DNA of 64,000 nt from Arenicola marina. Lineage: Eukaryota; Annelida; Polychaeta; Arenicolidae. Below are positions 35,001-44,000 of this stretch, piece after piece. Both the position numbers and the translations under genes were made by a program. The DNA is taken from the NCBI GenBank assembly GCA_964019135.1, contig OZ025260.1:31676254-31740253 (forward strand). The letters run 5' to 3'. The stretch's first letter is position 1, and every line of letters starts with the position of its first letter. A model generated the notes under the pieces. The model was given only the letters and a program-made list of their open reading frames with translations. It did no database searches and was not told the origin of the DNA.

Positions 35001-38000
35001 AGTACAAACACTCAGCCAAAGTAACCCAATTTGTAGAGATACATAATTTCATTATCCATAAATAAAAGATAAATATCGTTTTAACTTCATAGGGCAAACT
35101 ACTGTTTTTTGTTAGTCGCACCATACACATGTTACCGTAACATATACTTTAAAACATGTGTGCCTACCCCGCAATCAATGAAAATTGTATCGATCGATCA
35201 ATATAACATGAATGCCAAGCGGAAGAGTAGTTGCTAAGCCAACGAGACGCGGTTGCCAGGCAGGGCAGAATTTTGTTATTGGCTGGTAAAAAAAGTGTTT
35301 AAATAAAACTGTGAGCGCAATGATTTTGGGGCAGTTAAACAGCATCTGAGTGCCCGCCAAACTGAAAATCTGCCCGCCCAAATTGAAACTGCTCGCCCAT
35401 CCGGCGGGCATGCGGGTCTCTGGCTAATACAGTGTTGCCAGGGCAACGTCCCGCGAGACGATGACGTCACCTCGTCGAAGAGCTGGAGCATGACGGTGAG
35501 GACATCCGGGTGCGCCTTGTCCACCTCGTCGAAGAGCACGACGGCCGTCGGGAAGTCCCGCAGCTTCTTCGTCAGCTGACCGCCCTCCTCGTGACCCACG
35601 TACCCTGGCGGTGACCCGATGAACTTAGCCACCTGTGGAGTAACGATAACAAATATGATCGATATAATTAGGGAGAGACTTGCGGAGCGAGCGGCCCAGT
35701 TGTGAGAGTTTTAGTACGCATGTCGGGGTTAGGGTTAACACAAAAATGAGCCAAATCTAACATGGCGCACCTTCGTCTCGTCAGCCATAGAAGAAGCCGA
35801 TCATATGCTGCGGTGGGACGATGGGAGTCATTATAGTCGAGCTATGGTCCTTAACGCTAGGTCGCGATGTCGATCACAGCTACATGGGGAGTGTTAATGT
35901 TGAGAGTCTAATAGAACAGGTAGATAGGGAAGAAGCAATTGAACACTGTGTAACTACACAGACGAACACGACTTGAGAGATTAGCCTTAATTAACGGTAT
36001 ATTCTAATAGTTAAAAGCTAAAATGTTTTTTATTCTAGATAAAGAGTACTTAGCACGACGTAGTTTCTCAACGACATACAAGTATATCATTTACCTGATG
36101 AATGTAAATAACGTATTTCAACATTACGAAAGAACCGTTTGGGGACAGGACGCTACAATAACAACTGCAATAACATATACCTGTCATATTAAATAATAAA
36201 TGAGAATTTCGTAATAACTTACCTCGTGTTTCTCTTGATATTCTGACATGTCTATTCTTACAAATCCCTGTCACGGCACAAGACAAAATGAAATTGTAAA
36301 ACACATTAGTAGAGCATTGATAACCAACTGTCGTACAAGTATGCAACTAAAGTAAATTCTAGATACAGAGTTAGCGCTTATAAAGTTACAAAGATGAAGA
36401 CTTATTTTGACCATACGATTGCTGCCATAACGTATGTGAACGAGAAGACTTGTTTGGTTCAAGACCCACAAAGGCCATCTAAGCAGCGATTACCGCCGAG
36501 AAAACAACTCAACAACGGTCACCTTGTCGTTTTCCTTGTGCAGGTACCGCGCCACTTGTTTCGCCAGCTCAGTTTTACCTGCAACAACCGATGTTAAGGA
36601 TAACGCAGCCTTAACCACAACGTATCAAGCAGCAGATTCGGTTACTCGGGCTGAGAAAGATACTTCATTGCTCTATTTTATTTCATATCTAGGTCACGTT
36701 GGCCCTATCAAGGGCAACGTCTATTGAGGTAAGCATTCAATAAATAAGTTTATTATTATTTAACAATTAGAAGGGGGCATCGTTTAGGACATTTCTTCGA
36801 GACTGGTGTATAGGTTTAATATACAGGTGAGCTCGATAATATGCCGTTCTTGTGTACTCACCAATTAAATAGATCCAGTTTTTTCAGCATTAAATAGCGA
36901 GCACCCAGGGCGTCGGTATACAATACTGACCTATGCCAGACGACCCCAGGAAGAGGAAGACCAGCGGGTGCTCCTCGTCGTACCAGCCGTTCTCCTTCCG
37001 TCGAATGGCTGTAACGTCACCCAGGGCAACGACAGGAAATAAACATCACCCATGCAGGGCCACGACATGCAACAAACCTCACAAAGGGCAACGACAGGAT
37101 ATAACACACCAAGGCAACTACATGAATGTAACGATAATTTCTAAAAGCCGTCAAAACGTAAGCCGAATTACAGTTCAATATTTCGGTTTTGACACCAATT
37201 AAGGGATATATTACCAAAAGCTTTGGTTTTCGTTTATTTCATCATTAATGGGGTAGCATTAAGTGATATAAAAGCCCCGAAATATGTATATCCTTCGTCG
37301 TGCTGATAAAATTTTATTTACGGTTCCTGTCCTACGGTATCGACTTAGACCATTTTGCCGCTGGATACCGTGGTTAAAGCGTCCTTCTCCCCAATAATAC
37401 TCTCTTTGACCACTCACCGCTGGATACCGTGGTTATAGCGTCCTTCTCCCCTATAATACTCTTTCTGACCATCTCATCTTTGGATACCGTGGTTATAACG
37501 TCCTTCTCCCCGATGATACTCTTTCTGACCATCTCATCGTTGGATACCGTGGTTATAGCGTCCTTCTCCCCTATGATACTCTCTTTGACCAGTCACCGCT
37601 GGATACCGTGGTTATAGCGTCCTTCTCCCGTATGATACTCTCTTTGACCACTCACCGCTGGATACCGTGGTTATAGCGTCCTTCTCCCCTATGATACTCT
37701 CTTTGACCACTGACCGCTGGATACCGTGGTTATAGCGTCCTTCTCCCCTATGATACTCTCTTTGACCACTCACCGCTGGATACCGTGGTTATAGCGTCCT
37801 TCTCCCCTATGATACTTTTTCTGACCATCTCATCGTTGGATACCGTGGTTATAGCGTCCTTCTCCCCTATGATACTCTCTGACCATCTCATCGTTGGATA
37901 CCGTGGTTATAGCGTCCTTCTCCCCTATGATACTCTCTTTGACCACTCACCGCTGGATACCGTGGTTATAGCGTCCTTCTCCCCTATGATACTCTCTTTG

Positions 38001-41000: not shown

Positions 41001-44000
41001 TAGCACGCTCCTGCCCTATGATACTCTCTTTTACCATCTTACCGCTGGATACCGTGGTTATAACGACCTCCTGCCCTATGATACTCTCTTTGACCACTCA
41101 CCGCTGGATACAGTGGTTATAACGTCCTTCTCCCCTATGATACTCTCTATGACCATCTCACCGCTGGATACCGTGGTTATAGCGTCCTTCTCCCCTATGA
41201 TACTATCCGACCATCTCACCGTTGGATACCGTGGTTAAAGCGTCCTTCTCCCCAATGATACTCTCTTTGACCACTCACCGCTGGATACCGTGGTTATAGC
41301 GTCCTTCTCCCCTATAATACTCTTTCTGACCATCTCATCGTTGGATACCGTGGTTATAACGTCCTTCTCCCCGATGATACTCTTTCTGACCATCTCATCG
41401 TTGGATACCGTGGTTATAGCGTCCTTCTCCCCTATGATACTCTCTTTGACCAGCCACCGCTGGATACCGTGGTTATAGCGTCCTTCTCCCCTATGATACT
41501 CTCTTTGACCACTCACCGCTGGATACCGTGGTTATAGCGTCCTTCTCCCTTATGATACTCTCTTTGACCACTCACCGCTGGATACCGTGGTTATAGCGTC
41601 CTTCTCCCCTATGATACTCTCTTTGACCACTCACCGCTGGATACCGTGGTTATAGCGTCCTTCTCCCCTATGATACTTTTTCTGACCATCTCATCGTTGG
41701 ATACCGTGGTTATAGCGTCCTTCTCCCCTATGATACTCTCTCTGACCATCTCACCGCTGGATACCGTGGTTATAACGTCCTTCTCCCCTATGATACTCTC
41801 TTTGACCATCTCACCGCTGGATACCGTGGTTATGACGTCCTTCTCCCCTATGATACTCTCTTTGACTATCTCACCGCTGGATACCGTGCTTATAGCGTCC
41901 TTCTCCCCTATGATACTATCTGACCATCCCACCGTTGGATACCCTGGTTATAGCGTCCTTCTCCCCTATGATACTCTCTCTGACCATCTCACCGCTGGAT
42001 ACCGTGGTTATAACGTCCTTCTCCCCTATGATACTCTCTTTGACCACTTTACCGCTAGATACCGTGGTTAAAGCGTCCTTCTCCCCTATGATACCCTCTT
42101 TTACCATCTTACCGCTGGATACCGTGGTTATAGCACGTTCCTGCCCTATGATACTCTCTTTTACCATCTTACCGCTGGATACCGTGGTTATAACGACCTC
42201 CTGCCCTATGATACTCTCTTTGACCATCTTACCGCTGGATACCGTGGTTATAGCACGCTCCTGCCCTATGATACTCTCTTTTATCATCTTACCGCTGGAT
42301 ACCGTGGTTATAACGCCCTCCTGCCATATGATACTCTCTTTGACCATCCTACTGCCGGATACCGTGGTTATAACGCCCTCCTGCCCTATGATACTCTCTT
42401 TGGACATCTCACCGCTGGATACCGTGTTGATAGCGCCCTCCTGCCCCATGATACTCTCTATGACCATCTTACCGTTGGATACCGTGGTTATAGCGCATTC
42501 CTGCCCTATGATACTCTCTTTGACCATCTTACCGCTGGATACCGTGGTTATGGCGCCCTCCTTCCCTATGATACTCTCTCTGACCATCTCACCGTTGGAT
42601 ACTGTGGTCATAACGCCCTCTTGCCCTATGATACTATCTTTTACCATCTTACCGCTGGATACCGTGGTTATAAAGCCCTACTGCCATATGATACTCTCGT
42701 TGACCATCTTACCGCTGGATACCGTGGTTATGGCGCCCTCCTTCCCTATGATACTCTCTCTGACCATCTCACCGTTGGATACCGTGGTCATAACGCCCTC
42801 CTGCCCTATGATACTATCTTTTACCATCTTACCGCTGGATACCGTGGTTATAAAGCCCTACTGCCATATGATACTCTCGTTGACCATCTTACCGCTGGAT
42901 ACCGTGGTTATGGCGCCCTCCTGCCCTATGATACTCTCTTTTACTATCTTACCGCTGGATACCGTGGTTATGGCGCCCTCCTGTCCTATGATAACTTCTT
43001 TGATGCGTTGTTCCAGAGGAAATTTCCTCCGCTCTTCTGCTTCCTTCGCCTTTCTTATCTCGTTGAACTGCGACAAACAGTTAAATATATCAATAATATA
43101 TACCGACGATATCATATATACTATAATGGTGGCCAATATGAACAACAGGCAATAGACGACTGTATTTATGGGGGAGAAAGATTAGTGAACTCATAAGATG
43201 ACAAGTAAAATGAAAATGAAAAACGAAAGGTGCGACTATATGTCATTGACTAGGCTACATCCATTTTCAGACAAGAGGCAAGTGTAACATAGCCATCAGG
43301 GTCCTGTTCATTTGTTACACGAGCACCCTCCCCCCCTCACCCCCCCTGCCCCGCTTCTCCCACGCCCGCCGTTGCACCCTCACACGCTGGAATGGGACAT
43401 ATCGGGGAAGCCATTTAAGAGACGTGAAGCCATACCTCGGATTCTCCGCTTTTCAGTGTGTCCTTGACCTTCGTGGACCTGGCATACGCAGCGGGCACAT
43501 GCCCGCTCTCATTCTCTAAGGTGGGATTCGCCCCTACAAGTAAACACGCCAACGTCCTTGTAACATCTCGTCCCTTTGCCGTTGTTTTCTCGGTGTATGA
43601 TCACCAAGCTTCACCATAAAAAACCGGAAGTACATGTAATCGTACATGATTCAATTTGTATTTTATTACAATTGTGGATGTTTTTTTAATCAATCACTTA
43701 ACGATTAAATGTATCACTAGTTTTCCTAATTAATTCCAGTTTGTATTAACATATTTTTCTCATTTTATTTTTTTACTATATAATTATTTCTACATTGCAA
43801 AGAACATATTCACCAGTCAGGAAAAACTAACGTAGTACAGTGGTCCCTGCATTATACGGTCCCTCCATTATACGACTCCCTCCGTTATCAGGTCTTTTCT
43901 CTGTGCACGGAACACTTTCACATGTTAAAAAGCCCCTTTATTATATTATATATACGTGGCGTGGCAGTCGACTAGATTGGCTCTGAACAAACAACACATT

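What the first reader, a model, noticed from the sequence alone, without database searches (positions are those of the whole stretch)
37345..43067. CLPB minisatellite built from an exon end plus its own 5' splice site
The unit repeated about 95 times contains the last 40 nt of CLPB exon 7 (coding [13 protein letters not shown]), the exon-intron border and about 20 nt of intron. The founder is certain because this protein segment is conserved in CLPB orthologues and continues correctly into exon 8 (AIRRKENG). From memory, similar arrays across exon-intron junctions were called 'mirage minisatellites' in amphioxus. A 5.6-kb case in CLPB would be a strong new example and would support a lancelet origin. 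The splicing machinery must pick the first of dozens of near-identical donors.
Basis: partly seen in the sequence, partly recalled or inferred. Interest (0 to 1): 0.87.

Follow-up and report, generated by a model that had tools for sequence, protein, structure and literature searches.

The report
Exon-end minisatellite inside CLPB intron 7
In an animal gene for the mitochondrial chaperone CLPB, the last 43 bases of one exon plus its splice signal have been copied about 95 times in a row into the next intron, giving the cell dozens of look-alike splice sites; such "mirage" repeats are already known from lancelets, but this one is much larger than those we could read about.

Summary
Confirmed. 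The minus strand holds an intact CLPB gene (16 coding exons, 631 aa). Exon 7 (42953-43067) is followed by a 5,944-nt intron, about 5.6 kb of it a tandem array of 58-60-nt units. Each unit has the last 43 nt of exon 7 plus 15-17 nt of intron. There are 95 units counting the exon copy, 52 distinct. Exon 7 is the founder: its end encodes residues that align with human CLPB. A degenerate piece at the far edge has the exon's A at position -32, where all 94 other units have G.

80 of 95 units keep GT. Of 79 decoy GT donors, 69 match or exceed the real donor's U1 pairing (27 by only 0.1 kcal/mol). Only donors 1 and 2 leave the frame open; donor 2 would add 20 aa.

Best explanation: a "mirage" minisatellite grown by duplication, with no sign of selection against its donors, spliced out mostly from the first donor (inferred; no RNA seen). 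The kind is known from lancelet genes, with 2-7 copies where a number was seen. The organism is not identified, so lancelet origin is untested.

The parts
42953..43067 (-). CLPB exon 7 (115 nt), acceptor TCGCAG|TTCAAC, donor CCAGCG|GTAAGATAG
   Evidence: spliced model of 16 coding exons, introns GT-AG; protein aligned to human CLPB (7xbk), E 1.7e-228
42953..42995 (-). founder: the 43 exonic nt repeated in every unit
42951..42952 (-). authentic 5' splice site (GT), U1 duplex -8.2 kcal/mol
37342..42952 (-). array in intron 7: intronic tail of unit 1 plus units 2-95, 58-60 nt each
42891..42892 (-). donor of unit 2, the only decoy that keeps the frame open (+20 aa)
42858..42860 (-). in-frame TAG in unit 3; donors 3-95 lie beyond it
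37322..37341 (-). degenerate partial 96th unit at the far edge; has TAGGACAGGA as in the exon (14 of 20 to founder, 10 of 20 to array consensus)
   Evidence: shuffle p 4e-5 for the match to the founder
36931..37008 (-). CLPB exon 8 (AIRRKENG...), acceptor GTTACAG|CCATTC
32079..48884 (-). CLPB gene from ATG to stop, 16 coding exons
   Evidence: human alignment covers residues 68-611 of 631

Best explanation
It is a 'mirage'-type minisatellite. About 60 nt spanning the 3' end of CLPB exon 7 and its own 5' splice site were duplicated in tandem into intron 7 (inferred; a shared AAAGA lies just before the repeated part in the exon and in 56 of 95 unit tails, so slippage or microhomology is a likely start). 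The copies then multiplied by slippage and by duplication of multi-unit blocks (blocks shown; mechanism inferred). The array is transcribed as part of intron 7 and removed, with exon 7 joined to exon 8 mainly from the first donor (inferred: the gene is intact and only donors 1 and 2 leave an open frame). The decoy donors appear to drift freely, because nearness to the acceptor and the purine-rich first 72 nt of exon 7, not donor strength, probably decide (inferred).
For: Intact CLPB, 16 coding exons, introns GT-AG, 631 aa. 95 units, 52 distinct. The founder segment aligns to human [25 protein letters not shown], so it was exon before it was repeat. At position -32 the exon has A, all 94 other units have G, and the far-edge piece has A; it also has the exon's C at -31 and G at -28, kept by 20 of 94 units each. 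This fits old edges and a younger interior. Blocks: units 13-26 match 48-61 with 6 edits in 834 nt; units 27-36 match 66-75 with 1 edit in 596 nt. 80 of 95 units keep GT; 14 units read ATGAGA, which looks like one inherited change, and the last unit has GC. 69 of 79 decoy GT donors have U1 pairing energy at or below the authentic -8.2 kcal/mol: 17 equal, 27 at -8.3, 25 at -10.3 or -10.5; against 7 of 540 GT sites in the 14 other introns. First 72 nt of exon 7: 71% purine, 10 GAA/GAG triplets; repeated 43 nt: 1. For globin and Adh3 mirages normal splicing is suggested by data, for TnC it is stated, for PGBD5 inferred (passages read).
Against: No transcript was seen, so use of donor 1 is inferred. 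Founder-likeness declines only weakly with distance from the exon (Spearman -0.195, p 0.06). The old-edge argument rests on one site (-32) lost by all 94 units and a 20-nt piece. Decoys 2-5 lie 175-355 nt from the acceptor, within ordinary exon sizes (recalled), so position alone may not exclude them; some unit-2 isoform or loss through NMD is expected. Donor positions +1 to +5 are somewhat less conserved than the exonic part (0.894 against 0.949), which fits neutrality but has little power because units share ancestry. By match to the donor consensus (9 places, GT required) the CLPB unit scores only 6, reached by 60% of shuffles.
Confidence: 0.82

Rival explanations
1. The array has been put to use: dozens of U1-binding decoy donors slow or divert splicing of intron 7, making a +20-aa isoform from donor 2 and non-productive, NMD-sensitive transcripts from later donors, so array length tunes CLPB output.
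For: 79 decoy GT donors, 69 with U1 pairing equal to or better than the real one, 25 units with GTGAGT; donor 2 keeps the frame and leaves [21 protein letters not shown] whole after the insertion; stop in unit 3.
Against: No sign of constraint on donor positions (low power). Mirages in the papers read leave mRNA normal or are inferred to. No expression data.
Confidence: 0.1
2. The copy number is an assembly artefact: a real but shorter mirage was inflated or rearranged by the assembler.
For: Near-identical blocks (1 edit in 596 nt) could come from mis-joined reads; PMC3902484 reports two assemblies of the lancelet PGBD5 repeats that differ in copy number (2 or 7, 3 or 6).
Against: 52 distinct units of 95, regular spacing and a distinct edge piece. 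The founder relation does not depend on copy number. No reads could be examined.
Confidence: 0.06
3. The repeat came first, elsewhere, and the exon end or donor was captured from it.
For: None found here; only this 64-kb window could be searched.
Against: The exon segment aligns with human CLPB; the best match elsewhere in the window is 25 of 43.
Confidence: 0.01
4. The array is coding: exon 7 extends into it and encodes a 20-aa repeat protein.
For: 60 nt is 20 codons and the frame is open through the second unit.
Against: TAG in unit 3; 28 units have a 16-nt and 9 a 15-nt intronic part, breaking frame; the common changes in the array consensus (Q to E, E to K, G to D, read) alter the protein.
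Confidence: 0.01

Closest known systems
'Mirage' minisatellites of lancelet genes (globins BflGb6 and BflGb9; Adh3 of B. floridae and B. lanceolatum as cited there; PMC3087553, passages read)
   Different: There 6 and 3 units of 150-160 bp in two haplotypes (BflGb6) and a duplicate of 157 bp (BflGb9); Adh3 units 10-72 bp, copy number not seen. Here 95 units of 58-60 nt. Organism unknown here. The Adh3 paper itself is not held.
Tandem repeats at splice sites of lancelet PGBD5 (PMC3902484, passages read)
   Same: 60-bp and 108-bp imperfect repeats abutting or overlapping splice sites of conserved exons.
   Different: 2 or 7 copies and 3 or 6 copies, depending on assembly.
Human internal tandem repeats at exon-intron boundaries in segmental duplications (PMC2812944, passages read)
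   Same: Minisatellite expansion that can touch an exon-intron boundary.
   Different: On average 4 copies of 30-bp units, in recent primate paralogs; discussed as a source of novel introns, not as a long donor array.

Membership tests
mirage minisatellite | tandem repeat whose unit spans an authentic exon-intron boundary | tested here: met
   43 nt exon 7 plus 15-17 nt intron in 95 units; boundary fixed by the CLPB model and human alignment, not by RNA
mirage minisatellite | many but not all units carry the splice signal | tested here: met
   GT in 80 of 95 units
mirage minisatellite | host gene stays intact and regular mRNA is made | tested here: inconclusive
   intact 631-aa reading frame; no RNA available
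mirage minisatellite | concerted evolution inside the array, edges exempt | tested here: inconclusive
   for: far-edge piece has the exon's A at -32, absent from all 94 other units, and block duplications inside; weak: gradient from the exon Spearman -0.195, p 0.06
mirage minisatellite | length polymorphism, also somatic (reported for Adh3) | not testable with these tools
   one haplotype only
mirage minisatellite | found in cephalochordates | not testable with these tools
   no genome held for the window, no eukaryote collection; a paper search for five window sequences found nothing

The most novel reading that the evidence does not exclude
In this genome splice donors themselves seed giant minisatellites. 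A second array in the same window (58310 to beyond 64000, 171 units of 33 nt counted, 163 with GTAAGT), in the same transcriptional direction and upstream of SLC30A9-like exons, also carries a strong donor in nearly every unit. A process tied to 5' splice sites (for example R-loop or U1-linked repair during transcription) would create them, and the decoys would act as a U1 platform.
Probability: 0.08. Interest if true: 0.85.

Novelty: new member of a known kind. Interest (0 to 1): 0.5.

Why it matters
It is a natural experiment on how the spliceosome chooses a 5' splice site: the real donor and 79 decoy GT donors lie in near-identical copies of the same 60 nt, and 69 of the decoys are predicted to pair with U1 at least as well. 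Position and the unique first 72 nt of the exon are the obvious remaining marks. One set of long-read cDNAs would show whether the first donor always wins. It also extends mirages to about 95 copies, useful for studying how such arrays grow and whether they can create new introns.

Tried and rejected
RNA structure hiding the decoys: four 150-nt stretches gave z-scores of -0.72, 1.20, 1.63 and -1.37, no signal. Loss of decoys by selection: not seen. A coding array: stopped by TAG in unit 3. A gene on the plus strand through the array: one open frame (42072-43193) gave three Pfam matches with E 0.0011 to 0.0065, all below their curated cut-offs. tRNA and Rfam searches of the window: nothing at threshold. 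Lancelet origin: no test possible; GC outside arrays 46% and CpG observed/expected 0.96 do not decide. Donor-seeding as a general rule: of seven unit-and-strand combinations only the 33-nt unit stands out (8 of 9, 0.3% of shuffles); the CLPB unit itself scores 6 (60% of shuffles) and the 30-nt unit on its plus strand 7 (10%).

Paper searches (all ten used): 'mirage minisatellite' 0 papers; minisatellite+amphioxus+exon-intron 1; minisatellite+amphioxus 5; mirage+minisatellite 8; minisatellite+splice donor+tandem repeat+intron 8; amphioxus+tandem repeat+splice site+intron 15; window sequences 0; tandem+exon-intron boundary+intron gain+minisatellite 2; competing identical donors 0; CLPB+Branchiostoma 5. 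No listed title is about a CLPB repeat; the texts were not read for it. Passages of three more papers were seen: amphioxus VCBP has complete or partial exon copies in introns, some with splice sites; earthworm metallothionein has intron minisatellites and fourth-exon duplications absent from transcripts; amphioxus huntingtin mentions tandem repeats only in connection with assembly.

Full report
What is there. All coordinates are on the window's plus strand; the gene runs on the minus strand. A spliced model of CLPB (Skd3) with 16 coding exons, introns GT-AG, runs from 48884 to 32079 and encodes 631 aa without an internal stop. Residues 68-611 match human CLPB (E 1.7e-228); the first 67 residues are outside that alignment. 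Exon 7 is 42953-43067. Intron 7 is 5,944 nt; the 14 other introns run from 121 to 2,243 nt. About 5.6 kb of intron 7 is a tandem array, leaving about 330 nt of other sequence.

The unit. An anchor search found 95 units, the first being the exon itself, at spacings of 58-60 nt with none skipped. Each has 43 nt matching the end of exon 7 and 17 nt (58 units), 16 nt (28) or 15 nt (9) of intron. The founder agrees with the array consensus at 36 of 43 positions; the best other place in the window reaches 25. Of 32 CLPB exon edges tested by blastn (30 of them splice sites), the exon-7 donor has 95 matches counting itself, 26 match only themselves, and 5 have one to three extra matches of 16-25 nt, the longest near the exon-8 acceptor.

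Founder and direction. The exon segment encodes [13 protein letters not shown] and continues into AIRRKENG, aligned to human [21 protein letters not shown], so the exon is the source. At position -32 the exon has A and all 94 other units have G; a degenerate 20-nt piece beyond the last unit has A, and also the exon's C at -31 and G at -28, which 20 of 94 units each keep. It agrees with the founder at 14 of 20 places (shuffle p 4e-5) and with the array consensus at 10 of 20. The two edges therefore seem to keep the old state, with a younger interior; one site carries most of that argument. Multi-unit blocks have been duplicated: units 13-26 with 48-61 (6 edits in 834 nt) and 27-36 with 66-75 (1 edit in 596 nt). 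Identity to the founder is 0.87 in units 2-5, 0.84-0.85 in units 6-15 and 0.81-0.82 in units 16-95, but the trend is weak (Spearman -0.195, p 0.06). AAAGA lies just before the repeated part in the exon and in 56 of 95 unit tails (recounted), which would suit slippage at a short match; this is inference.

The decoy donors. 80 of 95 units keep GT. 14 units read ATGAGA, probably one inherited change; the last unit has GC. With the U1 5' end (sequence recalled), the real donor scores -8.2 kcal/mol. Of 79 decoy GT donors, 69 score as low or lower: 17 equal, 27 at -8.3 (no real difference), 25 at -10.3 or -10.5, these being the GTGAGT units. In the 14 other introns 7 of 540 GT sites reach -8.2. By simple match to the donor consensus, however, the CLPB unit has 6 of 9 places, which 60% of shuffles reach. 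Donor positions +1 to +5 are a little less conserved than the exonic part (0.894 against 0.949), and no special RNA structure was found in four stretches. The array thus shows no sign of being cleaned of strong donors.

What splicing could do. Read from the exon-7 acceptor, only donors 1 and 2 leave an open frame. Donor 2 would insert 20 aa, and because the unit repeats the exon end, the sequence next to exon 8 stays whole, so the insertion would sit in the linker before the AAA+ domain (inference). Unit 3 has TAG (42858-42860), so any later donor should give NMD-sensitive mRNA (inference). The first 72 nt of exon 7 are 71% purine with 10 GAA/GAG triplets, against 1 in the repeated 43 nt and 1 or 2 in the two array units counted; this unique stretch and nearness to the acceptor are the obvious marks of the real donor. 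Donors 2-5 are 175-355 nt from the acceptor, so exon length alone may not exclude them.

Comparison with the known. PMC3087553 (passages read) describes 'mirages', tandem repeats across exon-intron borders in lancelet globin genes, cites Adh3 and other genes, says that Adh3 data and globin RT-PCR suggest no interference with regular splicing, and proposes them as a source of new introns. PMC3902484 (passages read) describes 60-bp and 108-bp repeats at splice sites of lancelet PGBD5 and mentions Adh and TnC. The founding Adh3 paper is not held. The CLPB array meets the two sequence features tested outright, partly meets the concerted-evolution feature, and could not be tested for RNA, polymorphism or host. 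It is filed as a new and very large member of a known kind. No title listed by the ten paper searches is about a CLPB repeat.

Neighbours. A second array, 58310 to the window end, gives 171 units at exactly 33-nt spacing, 163 with GTAAGT, in the sense direction of a cation-efflux gene (Pfam Cation_efflux E 3.3e-27; SLC30A9 by recalled similarity) and upstream of its visible exons. Its best donor match is 8 of 9 consensus places, reached by 0.3% of shuffles before correcting for the seven unit and strand combinations tried; its founder, if an exon, lies off the window. A 54-nt duplication (98% identical) copies the start region of another exon of that gene (54157-54210 and 54275-54328) next to an 18-nt array. 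Together these suggest, without proving, a genome prone to such events.

Limits. One haplotype, no RNA, no relatives and no named organism. The copy number rests on the assembly.

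Noticed in passing
58310-64000 (-): 33-nt array, 171 units counted, 163 with GTAAGT, most preceded by a pyrimidine tract and CAG, in the sense direction upstream of SLC30A9-like exons; runs off the window.
   Followed up: partly
54157-54210 and 54275-54328: 54-nt, 98% identical duplication of the start region of an SLC30A9-like exon, beside an 18-nt array at 54329-54805; whether it includes the acceptor could not be decided.
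   Followed up: partly
7027-24781 (+): Three tandem copies of a unit of about 6.8 kb, 95-98% identical, with an open frame of 1095 aa seen in the first two (the third was in cut output); the first copy has no Pfam match at E up to 1 and no PDB match.
   Followed up: partly
30576-30712, 34092-34228, 56488-56624: Three copies (89-91% identical) of a dispersed repeat that looks tRNA-derived by eye; ARAGORN and Rfam find nothing.
   Followed up: no
37012-37115 (-): Degenerate short repeats (GGGCAACGACAGGA-like, seen by eye) just before the CLPB exon-8 acceptor; a 25-nt match at 88%.
   Followed up: no
26219-27618 and 49328-50386: Two further minisatellites: 34 nt x 41, adjacent to a dispersed repeat, and 30 nt x 35, between the SLC30A9-like gene and CLPB.
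   Followed up: no
47863-48431: Inverted repeat in CLPB intron 1, 579-column self-match at 80%, possibly a foldback element.
   Followed up: no
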